DNA from: an uncultured Pelagibacteraceae bacterium | GTDB taxonomy: Bacteria > Pseudomonadota > Alphaproteobacteria > Pelagibacterales > Pelagibacteraceae | DNA: 64,000 nt | Reading direction: 5' to 3' | Assembly: GCA_905612235.1 (NCBI GenBank) | Contig: CAJQRF010000003.1 | Span: 1 to 64,000 of the forward strand | In this document: positions 1 to 4,785 of the stretch, piece after piece | Layout: each line of letters starts with the position of its first letter | Numbering within the stretch: position 1 is the stretch's first letter | Made by a program: the position numbers and the translations under genes | The notes under the pieces: generated by a model | The model's input: the letters and a program-made list of their open reading frames with translations, nothing else | Told to the model about the DNA's origin: nothing | Databases searched by the model: none

Positions 1-1131
1 AAAAAAAAAGCATTAAAGCAAATCAAAGCAGGCGATTTTTCACTTGAAGATGCTGATAAGAAATTAAAAGCCGATAAAGAAGTTGTCCTTGCGGCGGTAA
101 AACAAGATGGCCATGCTCTTGAATATGCCAGCAAGAAATTAAAAGCAGATAAAAAGTTTATTCTTGATGTGGTAAAACAAACTGGATGGGCTCTTGAATA
201 CGCAGATAACAGTTTGAAGAAAGACAAACAGATTGTCTTAGAGGCAGTAAAAAATAGTGGTCATGCTCTTGAACACTCAGCTAACAGTTTCAAGAAAGAT
301 AAACAGGTTGTCTTAGAGGCAGTAAAAAACAATGGACAAGCTCTTCAATACGCAGATGATAGTTTTAAGAAAGACAAACAGATTGTCCTAGAGGCAGTAA
401 AACAAGACGGTGGGACTCTTCAATACGCAAATGATAGTTTTAAGAAAGACAAACAGATTGTTCTAGAGGCAGTAAAAAACAATGGTCGAGCTCTTGAGCA
501 CGCAGGTAACAGTTTTAAGAAAGACAAACAGATTGTCTTAGAGGCAATCAAACAATATGGTGGTGCTCTAGAATTTGTTGATGATAGTTTTAAGAAAGAC
601 AAACAGGTTGTCTTAGAGGCAGTAAAAAATAGTGGTCATGCCCTAGATTTTGCAGATGATAGTTTCAAGGAAGATAAAGAGATTAAGTTAGAAGTAGTAA
701 AACGAAATTTGGCATTATATTATGCAGAAAAAAATTCACAAAAAAATCCAGATATTTTAGCAATTGTTAATAAAGAACAAACTTCAGACAAAGAAAGAGT
801 TAAGTTATTGGAAGCATTCAAATTTTTGGTTCAACAAATAGCAAAAGGATTGAAAAAAGATTTCGATATCGGTGAGGATGGAGCTCTAGATTACGACATA
901 CCAAGTAAAAAAAATTTTGAACTCGTAATTACAAGAGACAGCGAGGGTGAGAATGGACAGTATAATATTACATTAGACCTTCATGAGTATGATAGCGACC
1001 ATTATGAACAAATTGCGTATAGCGGAGGGGGGTCTGAACTAAGTGACTTCGAAGGTATTATACAAGATTTCATAGCAAATGGTGGACGTATTGAAAAAAT
1101 GTATCATTATTTTGTGAAAGAAAAAAAATAA
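1..1131 (+). CDS. DUF4116-repeat protein, 5' end outside the window
   Basis: The frame is open to the first base of the window, so the ATG at 169 is only an internal methionine and the protein is truncated at its N-terminus here. From about residue 25 of the visible part it consists of eight consecutive 25-residue units of the type DKQIVLEAVKNxGxALEYA plus a ninth partial one, which is the DUF4116 repeat. The tail (about 150 residues) is not repetitive; it is acidic and ends in an aromatic-rich segment (MYHYF). DUF4116 proteins are of unknown biochemical function; the repeats probably form stacked helices used for binding. A second, short DUF4116 protein lies at 3394..3660. No signal peptide can be judged because the start is missing. 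Confidence 0.85.
   Translation, partial: KKKALKQIKAGDFSLEDADKKLKADKEVVLAAVKQDGHALEYASKKLKADKKFILDVVKQTGWALEYADNSLKKDKQIVLEAVKNSGHALEHSANSFKKDKQVVLEAVKNNGQALQYADDSFKKDKQIVLEAVKQDGGTLQYANDSFKKDKQIVLEAVKNNGRALEHAGNSFKKDKQIVLEAIKQYGGALEFVDDSFKKDKQVVLEAVKNSGHALDFADDSFKEDKEIKLEVVKRNLALYYAEKNSQKNPDILAIVNKEQTSDKERVKLLEAFKFLVQQIAKGLKKDFDIGEDGALDYDIPSKKNFELVITRDSEGENGQYNITLDLHEYDSDHYEQIAYSGGGSELSDFEGIIQDFIANGGRIEKMYHYFVKEKK
73..672 (+). repeat. 75-bp tandem coding repeat (DUF4116 units)
   Basis: Eight head-to-tail 75-bp units encode the 25-residue DUF4116 repeat. The block around aaagacaaacagattgt recurs almost unchanged in several units, so the DNA itself is repetitive and not only the protein. The central units (about 220 to 640) are most alike, which suggests expansion by unequal exchange or slippage more recent than the outer units. 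Confidence 0.85.
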
Positions 1132-1138
1132 AAACACG

Positions 1139-1225
1139 GTGTATTTATTGGCGCACTCTAAAGGAGATATTTATTCGCTCTATGAATTTTTTGACTTGGA
1201 AAAAGTTTTTGAGGATTTAAAATGA
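1139..1225 (+). CDS. Possible 28-residue peptide coupled to the next micro-ORF
   Basis: A GTG-started frame of 28 codons (MYLLAHSKGDIYSLYEFFDL...) follows the DUF4116 gene by seven bases. Its TGA overlaps the ATG of the next small ORF in an ATGA arrangement, a common sign of translational coupling. There is no convincing Shine-Dalgarno in front of the GTG. It could equally be a chance open frame or the tail of a degraded gene. No family recognised. Confidence 0.3.
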   Translation: MYLLAHSKGDIYSLYEFFDLEKVFEDLK

Positions 1226-1371
1226 AGAAAAGAAAAGTTAGAAAAGGGAACAGATCAAAATTAGAAAGAAAGTTAGATGAAGTAAATCATACCATGGAAT
1301 TAATTAGAACCATAATTCCTGTTATCATTTTAATAGTTCAGATAATTATTTTAATTAAACTATTCGGTTAA
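1222..1371 (+). CDS. Small basic single-span membrane protein (49 aa)
   Basis: This ORF is too short for the supplied track. It starts with ATG seven bases after a GAGG Shine-Dalgarno (1211..1214), unusually good for this genome. The first half is strongly basic and hydrophilic (MKKRKVRKGNRSKLERK), followed by a possible short amphipathic helix; about residues 27 to 47 are an uninterrupted hydrophobic span rich in isoleucine (IIPVIILIVQIIILIKL). The positive-inside rule places the N-terminus in the cytoplasm. It lies 8 bases before the endonuclease-like gene, so the two are likely co-transcribed. No family is recognised; small membrane proteins next to nucleases sometimes act as toxins or effectors, but nothing here proves that. 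Confidence 0.5.
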   Translation: MKKRKVRKGNRSKLERKLDEVNHTMELIRTIIPVIILIVQIIILIKLFG

Positions 1372-1379
1372 TTAAATAA

Positions 1380-2336
1380 ATGGATATATTTTCAAAAAGA
1401 ACAAAAAGTGTTGATAATATTTATCATCATTATTTAGGTAATGAATTTAAGAAAGTTTTTGGAGAAAGTAAAAAAAGTAACTGTGGTTGGTTGGAACCAC
1501 CAAAAAAACAAAATGAGGATCCAATAAAAGTTGCTATTGATTGTTTTATTCCAGAAAAGGAATATGGAAGAATATTAATGGATAAAAGTTTAGGTGAACT
1601 AGGATATAAACATAAATCAAATTCAAAAAAAGTAGGAATGAAGCCAGATTATTTTATCGAAAAACTAGGTTTAATATTTGAATTCGATGGTCCCATTCAT
1701 TATCAAAGTACATTTAAAATTCTTAAAGATCAAATGAAGTACACAAATTTGAATTCAATTGAACTTAATGGCAAACCCAAAATTTTAAGAGTAATTAGAA
1801 TTCCTTATTATTGGCAATTAACTAGAGATGTAGCAAAATATATGTTTGGTGACTTGATAAAACATTTTAGTGAACGTCTCACAAACTTGCCAAAAGAAGG
1901 TTTTTATAGTGATGAAAAATATTTTAAAGCAGTGTCAAAAATATATAAAAATATGTTTACTGGAAAACGAGCAACTTCAGAACTTGAAATCCCTGCTTGT
2001 GGTATACACGAAAGTACAGAGGGGCCATCACGATTTTCTTGGCAAGGGATAGATAAATTATTAACTGATTTTGAAAGAAAAGACGATTTAATAAAACCTC
2101 CAAAAAGCATTGAACATCAGTACATGTGGTGTCTAAAATATTGGCTTAGAGACATAGAAAAAGCAGGAAATAAAGATATGGAGTGGTTAATTTTACCTTT
2201 GAAAAAAGATGGTTCACCTTGGCATGAAAGATTTATGGATAGATACAATGAAAATATAAATTATAAGAAAGATGAATATTTACAAAACGTTTTTGCTAGA
2301 GATTACCATTCTATTGAACGTACAAAAAATATCTGA
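1380..2336 (+). CDS. Putative PD-(D/E)XK-type endonuclease, accessory
   Basis: 318 aa, unassigned. The segment at residues 86-107 (GMKPDYFIEKLGLIFEFDG.IHY) has the layout seen in DUF559/Vsr-like members of the PD-(D/E)XK superfamily: Asp90 followed about ten residues later by Glu101-x-Asp103-Gly and His107 on a second beta strand. A third predicted strand, PKILRVIRIPYYWQL (133-147), fits the RIPYY-type strand that follows in such folds. The C-terminal half (150-318) is alpha-helical, aromatic-rich and unrecognised, with a conserved-looking WLRDIEKAG segment. No signal peptide or membrane span. It stands directly behind the small membrane protein and faces an HTH-like gene. Function as a nuclease is inferred from the motif only; the catalytic lysine is not obvious. 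Confidence 0.5.
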   Translation: MDIFSKRTKSVDNIYHHYLGNEFKKVFGESKKSNCGWLEPPKKQNEDPIKVAIDCFIPEKEYGRILMDKSLGELGYKHKSNSKKVGMKPDYFIEKLGLIFEFDGPIHYQSTFKILKDQMKYTNLNSIELNGKPKILRVIRIPYYWQLTRDVAKYMFGDLIKHFSERLTNLPKEGFYSDEKYFKAVSKIYKNMFTGKRATSELEIPACGIHESTEGPSRFSWQGIDKLLTDFERKDDLIKPPKSIEHQYMWCLKYWLRDIEKAGNKDMEWLILPLKKDGSPWHERFMDRYNENINYKKDEYLQNVFARDYHSIERTKNI

Positions 2337-2379
2337 ATTTAAAAAAATTATATATAATAATATAAAACTACTATATTTT

Positions 2380-2835
2380 TTATTTAACCGACATCTTTAA
2401 TTTTGCAATTTTTTCTTCAACCTCATTTACCGCTTTAAAAATTTTTTGTTTTTCTTCATTGCTGATATTACTTCCTGCTTGACCTACTGGATCAATAGCT
2501 TCCTGAGTAATGTCCATTAAATTACCTATACGACCGCCAATATTTATTAAAACACTAGATATATTTTCATACTCATTAATTTTTCTAAGTTCGTATTCGA
2601 GTATGAAATTCAAATGATTTAAAAAAGGAGTACCAAGCTTCCTTTTTTGAAGTAGAACATCTAATTTAATGGCATCAGCAAGATGAATGTTATGATCTTT
2701 ATCGTTTGCATCCCCACACTTTCTAAAATGAGATATTGATTTTCCTGTAGATTTTTTAACTTCTTCATCTTCAAGTTTTGGTATTACTTGGCTTAAAGTA
2801 AATTCAATTGATAGAGGTTTTCTAAGCTTTGTCAT
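2380..2835 (-). CDS. Phage-regulator-like (CII-type HTH) protein, putative
   Basis: 151 aa, cytoplasmic. The N-terminal 75 residues (LSQVIPKLEDEEVKKSTGKSI..., SISHFRKCGDANDKD, LADAIKLDVLLQKRK) resemble the alphaproteobacterial proteins usually annotated as phage regulatory protein or CII-like, in which a helix-turn-helix is followed by a conserved FRKC-D-D segment and an IKLD helix. The C-terminal 70 residues (about 85-151) form long charged helices likely to mediate oligomerisation. It is transcribed toward the endonuclease-like gene (convergent stops 44 bases apart) and divergently from the next gene. A regulator of the island is a reasonable guess; the DNA-binding role is inferred from resemblance. 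Confidence 0.5.
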   Translation of the reverse strand: MTKLRKPLSIEFTLSQVIPKLEDEEVKKSTGKSISHFRKCGDANDKDHNIHLADAIKLDVLLQKRKLGTPFLNHLNFILEYELRKINEYENISSVLINIGGRIGNLMDITQEAIDPVGQAGSNISNEEKQKIFKAVNEVEEKIAKLKMSVK

Positions 2836-2924
2836 TTATTGAGATAAGATATCAAATTATTTAAAATTTAGATATTAAAAGTTGTATGGAAGTTGTACCT
2901 AAAAAATGTAAAATAAATAAAATT

Positions 2925-3359
2925 ATGGCAAAAAAAATAACAGCTAAATTTAATGTTATTAGCAAGGTAGATAATAAAAGTTTACCACGCTTTGAACTTG
3001 ATCATTCACCAAAGGAACATGCTAACTTTTTAAAAAAGAACAAACCCTGTCTAGGAAATTTTGTTTGGAGTGATTTTATATCTGATGAAGATGGATACGA
3101 AGACACTGAGATGACTGTAATAAACTCAACAGCAGAGTTAAAATATATTAAAACTAAAAAAAAGATGTATGCAATCATATTGTCAGGAAAAGTAGAAATA
3201 GAGTCTGAAAATAAAGCTCAATCTGAGAGATTTTTAGATAAAGATTGGTCTCAAGAATGGATAATTCCTTCTCTTACTTTTGAACCGCTCAAACCAGGAG
3301 ATAAAACACACGCTGACATTTCTCAAGACATGGACAGAGATTTATATACATTAGAATGA
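2925..3359 (+). CDS. Hypothetical protein, accessory island
   Basis: 144 aa if started at the ATG giving MAKKITAKFNVIS; the ORF track starts 39 bases upstream (2886) with a lysine/cysteine-rich extension, and neither start has a recognisable Shine-Dalgarno, so the choice is a guess. The protein is soluble, with an acidic middle (SDEDGYEDTEMTVIN) and alternating beta-type segments (YAIILSGKVEIES, EWIIPSLTFEPLKPGD). No family recognised. It is divergent from the HTH-like gene, with a short shared upstream region that may be the control point of the island. Confidence 0.55.
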   Translation: MAKKITAKFNVISKVDNKSLPRFELDHSPKEHANFLKKNKPCLGNFVWSDFISDEDGYEDTEMTVINSTAELKYIKTKKKMYAIILSGKVEIESENKAQSERFLDKDWSQEWIIPSLTFEPLKPGDKTHADISQDMDRDLYTLE

Positions 3360-3393
3360 TAAAAAACGGTTAAAGGTTCTCTAATTTTTGTCA

Positions 3394-3660
3394 CTATGTT
3401 TTTTTTTCTACTAAGTCAATTATATCTTTATCCTCAGTAAGTCTTTTACTAAGTAAGAGTAATGTATGTTTATTATTTTTAACTGCTTCTATTGCAATTT
3501 CTTTATCATCCAAAAAATTACTGTTAGCATCAGCAATTGCAAACCCGTCATTTTTAACAGCTGCTAACACAATTTCTCTATCTTTCTTAAAATCATCTGA
3601 AAGATTTTTTAAATTTAATCCATTTTCTTTAACAAGTTTTAAAGCTTCATCTTTATTCAT
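3394..3660 (-). CDS. Short DUF4116 protein
   Basis: 88 aa with about three 25-residue DUF4116 units: LKLVKENGLNLKNLSDDFKK, DREIVLAAVKNDGFAIADA and DKEIAIEAVKNNKHTLLLL. It is the same family as the repeat protein at the left edge of the window but much shorter and more diverged, so it is not a recent copy. It lies 3 bases downstream of the RecB-like nuclease gene on the same strand, so the pair is probably one transcript. Function unknown. Confidence 0.75.
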   Translation of the reverse strand: MNKDEALKLVKENGLNLKNLSDDFKKDREIVLAAVKNDGFAIADANSNFLDDKEIAIEAVKNNKHTLLLLSKRLTEDKDIIDLVEKKT

Positions 3661-3663
3661 AAC

Positions 3664-4464
3664 TTAAATAAAATCTTTTCCTGTGTTTAAATACATACAA
3701 TTTTCACAGCTTTTATTTATTTCTGGCACGCTGTCTGAGTCTAATGTTTTTTTCATTTCTATAATTTTATCATCTATCCAAGATGTGTCTGTTTTGTATG
3801 GAACCAAGGTTGTAGTAAAATTTAACTTATCATCAAATTTGTCATAACTTTTTTCTCCATTACAAACATAAAAATAAGCTATGTCAGATACTTTAAAATC
3901 CATCTTTCTTAAAATGTAAACATAAATATCCATCTGAATTTTATACCCAAAATGATAAATGTTACTTAAGTAAGGTTCTGTTTCTACTTTCACATTACTA
4001 GATTGAGCTTTGTAATCGACGACTACTAGTTCTTTTTTATCTTCATCAAGCCAAATATCATCAACGCCACCATGTATTTCTATATTGGTATTTTTATCGA
4101 GAAAAGAAATACCTCCTGTTAAGGCATTTCTCCAATGATCCATCTTTTCATGTTCAAATGGAATAAACTTAAGGTTATTTTTAACCACATAAGGATGTGG
4201 TTTTTTTTGTTTTCTTAATTCATCAAATTCTTTTTTAAGCAATTCATCTACAGCTGAATTTAGTGACCACCCTGGCATTCCAGGGTCTTTTAAACCTTTA
4301 ACTCTTTCAAGGTAAAAGCATCTCTTGCAATCTAGAAAATTGCTAAATTTTGATCTACTTATTTTAAATTTCTCATTGGACCCTTTAGTATAAATGCTTC
4401 CTTTTCGGGTTCTTAATGGAGTAACTTCTGCTAACTCTCCTTTTGAATTTCTTTTTAGTCCCAT
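3664..4464 (-). CDS. RecB/Cas4-like PD-(D/E)XK nuclease with four cysteines
   Basis: 266 aa. SRSKFSNFLDCKRCFYLERVKGL (residues 37-58) is the N-terminal signature of the RecB-family nuclease domain (PF12705-like), GGVDDIWLD (132-140) supplies the first acidic motif and VVVDYKAQS (147-155) gives the D-x-K catalytic core with Asp150 and Lys152. Cys46 and Cys49 at the N-terminus and Cys253 and Cys256 (CENC) at the C-terminus give a four-cysteine set; Cas4 and AddB also build a 4Fe-4S cluster from one N-terminal and three C-terminal cysteines, so the 2+2 spacing here is a variant. It is a stand-alone nuclease domain with no helicase, no Cas genes and no CRISPR nearby. Related short proteins occur in mobile and viral regions. 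Cluster binding is inferred. Confidence 0.7.
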   Translation of the reverse strand: MGLKRNSKGELAEVTPLRTRKGSIYTKGSNEKFKISRSKFSNFLDCKRCFYLERVKGLKDPGMPGWSLNSAVDELLKKEFDELRKQKKPHPYVVKNNLKFIPFEHEKMDHWRNALTGGISFLDKNTNIEIHGGVDDIWLDEDKKELVVVDYKAQSSNVKVETEPYLSNIYHFGYKIQMDIYVYILRKMDFKVSDIAYFYVCNGEKSYDKFDDKLNFTTTLVPYKTDTSWIDDKIIEMKKTLDSDSVPEINKSCENCMYLNTGKDFI

Positions 4465-4506
4465 AATTAATTAAAATATATTATAATTTATAAGATTTTA
4501 TAGGAT

Positions 4507-4528
4507 AAACTCGATTTAAACTCGATTT
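4507..4528. repeat. 11-bp perfect direct repeat upstream of a small gene
   Basis: aaactcgattt occurs twice in exact tandem between the divergently arranged RecB-like nuclease (minus) and the 75-aa gene (plus). It lies about 30 bases before the latter's ATG, a position where a regulator binding site or a slippage product could sit. Confidence 0.6.
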
Positions 4529-4557
4529 AAAAGAGATAAAACAAGATTTAGACAGGC

Positions 4558-4785
4558 ATGAACAAAGAAAACGCAAGTAAACTCTGGAAAATCATACAGG
4601 AAGCTGGCGATTATTTAAAAGGACAGTTGCCTGATCACCCAAACCACCCTAAAGGTCGAAACCCATATGCTCATGTCGCGATATGCGTGAAATCAAAATT
4701 TAAAAAAAGCTATAAAGATATAGAAGATGAAAAATTTCAAGAAATTTTAGATTATATTGAAGTTTTAAAAAAAAACCCGACCTAA
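4558..4785 (+). CDS. Small conserved-looking hypothetical protein (75 aa)
   Basis: 75 aa, soluble, basic. It contains a histidine/proline cluster (LPDHPNHPKGRNPYAHVA, about residues 24-42) followed by a helical charged C-terminus (KSYKDIEDEKFQEILDYIEVL). Composition is normal for the genome and the frame is clean, so I take it as real. No recognised family. It ends 4 bases before the convergent pseudoazurin gene. Confidence 0.55.
   Translation: MNKENASKLWKIIQEAGDYLKGQLPDHPNHPKGRNPYAHVAICVKSKFKKSYKDIEDEKFQEILDYIEVLKKNPT

What the first reader, a model, noticed from the sequence alone, without database searches (positions are those of the whole stretch)
1..4464. Accessory island of two DUF4116 genes bracketing two nuclease candidates
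DUF4116-repeat proteins, a PD-(D/E)XK-like enzyme with a small membrane protein in front, a phage-regulator-like gene and a RecB/Cas4-like nuclease with four cysteines are clustered without housekeeping genes. The set could be a defence or mobile-element system not described so far; a single nuclease-membrane protein pair under a CII-like regulator is an unusual layout.
Basis: inference. Interest (0 to 1): 0.6.

Follow-up and report, generated by a model that had tools for sequence, protein, structure and literature searches.

The report
Mobile nuclease defence island in SAR11
A small cluster of genes in an ocean bacterium of the SAR11 group, including two different DNA-cutting enzymes, turns out to be a recurring set that is inserted at a site where relatives carry other restriction- or nuclease-type genes, so it is probably an undescribed anti-virus defence cassette.

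Summary
The window is the start of a contig of a Pelagibacteraceae (SAR11) genome. Four families recur together: a Cas4/AddB-like nuclease with four invariant cysteines (3664-4464), a CII/CP76-like regulator (2380-2835), a divergent Vsr-like PD-(D/E)XK protein (1380-2336) and DUF4116 repeat proteins. Two other SAR11 genomes have nuclease, regulator and Vsr-like gene as three consecutive genes. Regulator and nuclease lie within 6 kb in 13 of 18 genomes holding both (about 0.2 expected). The Vsr-like family reaches Gammaproteobacteria, Polynucleobacter and Verrucomicrobia, often beside the nuclease or DUF4116.

The island ends at the start of a conserved 75-aa gene (4558-4785). In relatives that gene's first ~20 codons are duplicated (53-64 nt, 96-97%) around short integrase-less inserts carrying a NucS-like protein, or the same nuclease plus a GmrSD-Schlafen restriction protein. 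Others carry a C5 methyltransferase with putative endonucleases, or a helicase, at one visible end. The window has the matching right end.

Most likely this is a mobile defence cassette. Defence is inferred from gene company, not tested. The claim that CII controls a nuclease-membrane pair is not supported.

The parts
1..1131 (+). DUF4116 repeat protein, 5' end cut by the contig start
   Evidence: Pfam PF13475 E=1.9e-110; 75-nt DNA repeats; family present in 6 of 80 relative genomes, including all 3 that have the CII+RecB pair
1222..1371 (+). 49-aa single-pass membrane protein
   Evidence: homologs in L026, L109, L110, L113 at 82-92% identity, mostly synonymous changes; found only in RecB/CII islands among the fetched loci
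1380..2336 (+). Vsr-like PD-(D/E)XK nuclease with a helical C-terminal part
   Evidence: 20-sequence family, invariant D90/E101/H107/D117; model pLDDT 89, pTM 0.88; weak Vsr and DUF559 similarity
2380..2835 (-). CII/CP76-like regulator
   Evidence: 5 of 11 family members hit PF06892, best 4.3e-5; family in 44 of 397 genomes
2886..3359 (+). 157-aa protein of unknown function, island-specific
   Evidence: no family hit; 35% homolog directly after the CII-like gene in AG-447-M05 (L086/L136)
3394..3660 (-). short DUF4116 protein (88 aa)
   Evidence: Pfam PF13475 E=2.4e-21; short DUF4116 genes also follow CII in L086
3664..4464 (-). RecB/Cas4-like PD-(D/E)XK nuclease with four invariant cysteines
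   Evidence: PDDEXK_1 E=2.8e-12; alignment A4; Foldseek best hit Cas4 8d3l_J, E=1e-5; family in 85 of 397 genomes
4501..4557 (+). right end of the inserted element: taGGATAA, an 11-bp tandem repeat pair (4507-4528), AGAGATAAAACAAG
   Evidence: same layout with a different repeat unit at the right ends in L069, L072, L123
4558..4617 (+). att-like site: first ~20 codons of the 75-aa gene, duplicated at the left end in relatives
   Evidence: 64-nt (97%) direct repeat in L069, 53-nt (96%) in L123, single left-end copy in L093
4558..4785 (+). conserved 75-aa chromosomal gene used as the insertion site
   Evidence: 72-95% identical in the genomes of the genus where this region was recovered

Best explanation
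The island is a non-autonomous mobile defence cassette of SAR11 bacteria. Its right end joins the 5' end of a conserved 75-aa gene by an att-like exchange, and the recombinase is presumably supplied in trans. Its core is a Cas4/AddB-like nuclease plus a Vsr-like nuclease, a CII/CP76-like DNA-binding regulator and DUF4116 solenoid proteins. Proposed working: the regulator keeps the set low, DUF4116 proteins act as sensor or adaptor, and on infection the Vsr-like enzyme cuts or nicks foreign (perhaps modified) DNA, which the Cas4-like enzyme then resects. Shown: gene identities, catalytic residues, co-occurrence, insertion-site anatomy, hotspot cargo. Inferred: defence function, trigger, order of action, recombinase in trans.
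For: Three consecutive genes RecB-CII-Vsr in G358 and in MAG BS30m-G16 (L145); the same order, interrupted, in G176. CII and RecB within 6 kb in 13 of 18 genomes having both, about 8 distinct arrangements. RecB within 5 kb of 7 of 18 Vsr-like loci found by Vsr alone, background 0.002 per locus. DUF4116 in all 3 of 80 genomes with the pair, Fisher p=2e-4. Other cargo at the same insertion site: NucS-like; RecB + GmrSD-Schlafen; C5 methyltransferase with putative endonucleases; helicase. Restriction-type neighbours elsewhere: MmeI-type IIG R-M, KAP/PifA-like NTPase, HEC-05-like, C5 methyltransferase. Catalytic residues invariant.
Against: No activity data of any kind. Many relatives of the RecB-like gene sit alone among housekeeping genes, e.g. 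the lpxL-purD slot in G004/G005/G031, so it can act without partners. The set is never identical twice, and about 5 of 20 Vsr-like loci have none of the partners within 5 kb. Ligase, WGR, BRCT and HAD genes in the same islands also fit DNA repair. The left end of the window's own element is not seen, and the same end motif was not found at islands elsewhere.
Confidence: 0.5

Rival explanations
1. A DNA-repair or recombination accessory set: the two nucleases, with the ligase/WGR/BRCT genes of sister islands, process DNA ends for repair or for the element's own movement rather than fighting phages.
For: ATP-dependent ligase with two partner genes, WGR and BRCT proteins recur in the same islands; RecB/AddB/Cas4 folds are repair nucleases too; many RecB copies sit alone among housekeeping genes.
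Against: The ligase set is not seen in the window, nor near the G358, G176 and L145 versions. Complete elements at the same site carry RecB + GmrSD-Schlafen or a lone NucS-like gene, and neighbours are largely restriction-type. Patchy presence (Vsr-like in 5-6 of 397 genomes) fits an arms race better than repair.
Confidence: 0.25
2. Ordinary flexible-genome turnover: the genes are independent passengers of SAR11 variable regions that meet because hotspots are few.
For: Gene order and content vary widely; RecB, CII and DUF4116 also occur apart; the membrane gene changes partners.
Against: Gene rows with 3-15 nt gaps in L087/L144 and L145; co-location far above the genome background, also across phyla; adjacency at several unrelated sites (purL locus in G072/G082, G053, G131, the 75-aa gene).
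Confidence: 0.17
3. Phage- or satellite-derived genes: remnants of a prophage or phage satellite.
For: CII/CP76-like regulator; one IMG/VR contig (L080) carries the set with MoxR and vWA-metallopeptidase genes of phage-type families.
Against: No capsid, tail, terminase or integrase recognised in the island or in the 21 kb of L080 read; only that one contig among 2.9 million viral contigs; one weak hit and no hit in 50,697 phage records.
Confidence: 0.08

Closest known systems
Cas4 / solo-Cas4 and AddB-type PD-(D/E)XK nucleases (Pfam PDDEXK_1)
   Same: Fold, catalytic motifs, four invariant cysteines; Hudaiberdiev et al. 2017 (PMC5704561) suggested that solo-Cas4 serves unknown defence or repair in small-genome microbes and noted R-M neighbours.
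   Different: Matches PF12705, not Cas_Cas4 (E=0.58); below the TIGR00372 cut-off (27.5 vs 65 bits); cysteines spaced 2+2; sits with CII-, Vsr- and DUF4116-type partners.
Vsr very-short-patch-repair endonuclease / DUF559 / DUF2726 / PvuRts1I N-terminal domain
   Same: D...E-x-x-G-x-x-H-Y...D residue pattern and PD-(D/E)XK-type core; Vsr is the second PDB hit, phage VSR/DUF559 proteins crowd the viral hits.
   Different: No fold hit at E<=0.001 in PDB or BFVD; extra PYYxQLT motif and helical C-terminal part; no DNA methyltransferase partner in the window.
Phage_CP76 (phage regulatory protein CII)
   Same: Family-level similarity (5 of 11 members, best 4e-5), similar size.
   Different: The window protein has no hit itself; it lives in chromosomal islands, not recognised prophages.
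Tycheposons, PICMIs and other helper-dependent islands of marine bacteria
   Same: Small cargo elements at fixed chromosomal sites in ocean bacteria, moving with outside help (general description from own knowledge; PMC10803314 and PMC11389934 seen as abstracts only).
   Different: No recombinase, replication or packaging gene in the two complete elements seen; the target is the 5' end of a protein gene, not a tRNA.
GmrSD-type restriction proteins and HEC-05 candidate defence proteins
   Same: The same RecB family is carried with a GmrSD_N-Schlafen protein in L123 and L140.
   Different: That partner is absent from the window island.

Membership tests
Cas4 (CRISPR-associated or solo) | PD-(D/E)XK catalytic motifs | tested here: met
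   D135, D150-x-K152, Q177xxxY181 invariant; Foldseek Cas4 E=1e-5
Cas4 (CRISPR-associated or solo) | four conserved cysteines for an Fe-S cluster | tested here: met
   C46, C49, C253, C256 invariant in 14 sequences; criterion from PMC5704561; cluster binding itself not testable here
Cas4 (CRISPR-associated or solo) | match to the Cas4 models above cut-off (PF01930, TIGR00372) | tested here: not met
   PF01930 E=0.58; TIGR00372 27.5 bits vs cut-off 65; it belongs to the wider PF12705 group
Vsr endonuclease | significant sequence or fold match | tested here: not met
   no PDB match at E<=0.001; 1vsr second at E=1.2; DUF559 in 3 of 20 relatives, best 7.6e-6
Vsr endonuclease | works with a dcm-type C5 methyltransferase | tested here: not met
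   no methyltransferase among the island's genes
Phage_CP76 / CII | PF06892 match above its cut-off | tested here: inconclusive
   5 of 11 members below E=0.1, best 4.3e-5; window member none
Known defence system | set of genes matching a PADLOC system | tested here: not met
   only generic Cas4 models match 3664-4464 (E=1.9e-9) and weak matches exist for the DUF4116 protein; no system
Anti-phage defence (function) | protects a host against phage | not testable with these tools
   needs a phage challenge
Site-specific integrative element | att-like direct repeats at a fixed site plus an empty site in relatives | tested here: met
   L069 and L123 repeats; empty site in L067, L070; for the window only the right end is visible
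Site-specific integrative element | own integrase | tested here: not met
   complete elements L069 (1 gene) and L123 (3 genes) have none
Tycheposon | tRNA target and tyrosine recombinase (own knowledge) | tested here: not met
   no tRNA in the window; target is a protein gene

The most novel reading that the evidence does not exclude
SAR11 genomes carry an undescribed family of tiny integrase-less mobile elements that enter the 5' end of one 75-aa gene, each with its own end-repeat code and each delivering a different nuclease-based defence cassette; the window's cassette is a new multi-gene defence system (Cas4-like + Vsr-like nuclease + CII-like regulator + DUF4116 sensor).
Probability: 0.35. 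Interest if true: 0.8.

Novelty: new variant of a known kind. Interest (0 to 1): 0.6.

Why it matters
SAR11 are among the most numerous bacteria on Earth and live under heavy phage pressure, yet their streamlined genomes are generally thought to hold few recognised defence systems (own knowledge). A recurring nuclease set that matches no PADLOC system, plus a precise insertion site whose cargo looks like defence in five genomes, gives a concrete handle: the 75-aa gene's 5' end can be used as bait to harvest further cassettes from ocean genomes, and the compact three-gene version (L145, L144) is small enough to test in a laboratory host.

Tried and rejected
Phage origin: protein and profile scans of viral contigs and phage records gave one IMG/VR contig, one weak Vibrio-phage hit and nothing else; rejected as the main reading. 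The att region has no informative match in phage records. A profile of all 14 RecB sequences was too diverse for a viral scan. The first genome-collection scan with two Vsr-like sequences found nothing; the six-sequence profile found 18 loci. Sequence search of PDB with either nuclease gave nothing useful. The missing left half was sought through the neighbouring transporter gene in the own genome: not found, so the left boundary stays open. Considered that the 49-aa ORF was a chance ORF or a DNA repeat: rejected, changes are mostly synonymous. Considered that the RecB-like gene is tied only to this island: rejected, its tree mixes island and lpx-locus copies. Literature searches for DUF4116 and SAR11 defence gave little.
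Full report
WHAT IS THERE. The window is the first 64 kb of contig C3 of a 62%-complete genome. The first DUF4116 ORF is cut by the contig start. After 4785 come a cupredoxin, a transporter and a moa cluster that are conserved in the genus.

THE RECB/CAS4-LIKE NUCLEASE (3664-4464). It is PDDEXK_1 (E=2.8e-12). Across 14 divergent sequences the invariant positions are C46, C49, D135, D150, K152, Q177, Y181, C253 and C256, plus a few structural ones. The AlphaFold model matches type I-C Cas4, AdnA, RecE, MGME1, lambda exonuclease and AddB. The family is found in 85 of 397 genomes of the order. Many copies sit alone between core genes, above all at an lpxL-purD slot where different genomes hold different alleles. 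The window's own genome has a divergent PDDEXK_1 in that slot (L065:9143-9949). The tree mixes island and non-island copies, so the gene moves between contexts.

THE VSR-LIKE PROTEIN (1380-2336). It has no database family. Relatives: 4 clear and 1 weak among 396 other genomes of the order, 18 loci in the GTDB contigs including Gammaproteobacteria, Polynucleobacter rarus, a Desulfobacteraceae MAG and a Verrucomicrobia single cell, and one IMG/VR contig. Twenty sequences keep D90, E101, G104, H107, Y108, D117 and PYYxQ.T. The model is confident (pLDDT 89, pTM 0.88). No fold hit is significant, but Vsr, RecE, PvuRts1I, cap-snatching endonucleases and phage VSR/DUF559 proteins crowd the lists, and 3 of 20 members hit DUF559 (best 7.6e-6). 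I read it as a divergent Vsr-like PD-(D/E)XK nuclease; that is inference from several weak but concordant signals.

CO-OCCURRENCE. G358 (L087/L144) and MAG BS30m-G16 (L145) carry RecB, CII and Vsr genes in one row on one strand with gaps of 3-15 nt; G176 has the same order with small genes between RecB and CII. G141 has CII, a homolog of the 157-aa protein, two DUF4116 genes, then Vsr and another DUF4116. The IMG/VR contig has DUF4116, WGR, Vsr, RecB', the membrane protein and CII. G082, G072, G053, G131, G182 and G233 have CII next to RecB, five of these six with DUF4116 in the locus. In the same 397 genomes CII is in 44 and RecB in 85; 18 have both and in 13 they lie within 6 kb. Counting only distinct arrangements, 8 of 13 (p about 4e-13). 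Some members of the profiles came from such loci; the unbiased single-sequence searches give 2 of 3 genomes with both, excluding the window's own (p=4e-4). For Vsr-like loci, found without regard to neighbours, RecB lies within 5 kb in 7 of 18 and CII in 6 of 18, against backgrounds of 0.002 and 0.001. DUF4116 is rare (6 of 80 genomes) but present in all three of those genomes with the CII-RecB pair. Related genomes are not independent, so the p-values are indicative.

THE MEMBRANE PROTEIN. The 49-aa ORF recurs at 82-92% identity beside RecB' in L026 and after the channel gene in L109, L110 and L113, with 12-17 synonymous versus 3-5 replacement codon changes. It is a real small protein of these islands, not a fixed partner of the Vsr-like gene. 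In L073, L109, L110 and L113 the RecB' gene is followed by a 98-aa protein and an 850-aa CASTOR/POLLUX-like channel, a combination that also suggests a conflict system.

THE INSERTION SITE. The 75-aa gene at 4558-4785 is 72-95% identical in the genomes of the genus where the region was recovered, and is usually next to a transporter gene. In G001 (L069) the first ~60 nt of this gene are duplicated as a 64-nt direct repeat (97%) around a 1.6-kb insert with a single NucS-like gene; the sequence before the outer copy equals that of the empty site in L067 and L070. In G260 (L123) a 53-nt repeat (96%) flanks 3.7 kb with a window-type RecB, a 127-aa protein and a GmrSD_N-Schlafen protein. In G154 (L093) the left copy is followed by a C5 methyltransferase (Pfam 6e-72) and two ORFs that I read as restriction endonucleases from sequence alone (no informative Pfam hit); in G004 (L072) the right end follows a helicase fragment. 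All visible right ends, including the window's (4501-4557), read GGATAA, then a tandem repeat pair whose unit differs from element to element, then AGAGATAAAACAAG or a close form, then the start codon. L069 has the same repeat pair near its left end too. Among 153 loci scanned this layout appears only at these places. The two complete elements contain no integrase. So the window island carries the right end of a family of small, probably helper-dependent elements, and the cargo at this site in five genomes is nuclease- or restriction-related. The window's left end is off the contig and was not found.

MECHANISM. Shown: gene content, catalytic residues, co-occurrence, site anatomy. Inferred: defence. 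The simplest working model is a restriction-like cassette in which the Vsr-like enzyme nicks or cuts foreign DNA (perhaps modified DNA, given the faint PvuRts1I similarity and the GmrSD partner in sister elements) and the Cas4-like enzyme resects it. The CII-like protein would set expression and DUF4116 solenoids would sense a phage product. The CII-like gene cannot simply head the nuclease-membrane unit, since it converges on it. Repair or recombination is the main rival.

NOVELTY. PADLOC has no system for this set. Hudaiberdiev et al. (PMC5704561) already suspected unknown defence roles for solo-Cas4 in small genomes. The new points here are the partner set, the reach of the Vsr-like family and the 75-aa-gene insertion site. 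I file it as a new variant of a known kind (nuclease-based defence cassettes on small mobile elements), with the function still to be tested.

Noticed in passing
L065:9143-9949 (G000:C19) and L027-L029, L036, L037, L040, L044: One slot between lpxL and the purD neighbourhood holds different RecB/Cas4-like alleles in different SAR11 genomes (266-aa type, 238-aa type, or a highly divergent one in the window's own genome), which looks like in-place swapping.
   Followed up: partly
L073:9942-13536, L109:4735-8255, L110, L113: RecB-like nuclease, 98-aa protein and 850-aa CASTOR/POLLUX-like ion channel in one operon beside the CII-like gene; a possible separate conflict system.
   Followed up: partly
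L078:10525-13173, L132, L136, L138, L142, L147: ATP-dependent DNA ligase with two uncharacterised partner genes recurs in the same islands, sometimes directly before DUF4116 and Vsr-like genes.
   Followed up: no
L140:7800-10736 and L123:789-4120: Vsr-like and RecB-like genes overlap in L140; the window-type RecB sits with a GmrSD_N-Schlafen (HEC-05-like) protein in two unrelated genomes.
   Followed up: partly
L080 (IMGVR_UViG_3300035206_000817): Contig called viral carries MoxR ATPase, vWA-metallopeptidase, LRR-BRCT, WGR and many lipoprotein genes but no recognised virion gene in 21 kb; possibly a bacterial island.
   Followed up: partly
L075:9481-11072, L077:2383-4172, L098:3970-7916: CII-like genes without RecB often sit beside trypsin-like protease and membrane protein genes; CII may be a general island regulator in SAR11.
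   Followed up: no
window 43-717: DUF4116 DNA repeats have a strict 75-nt period (68-74% identity), a likely reason for the contig break at position 1.
   Followed up: no
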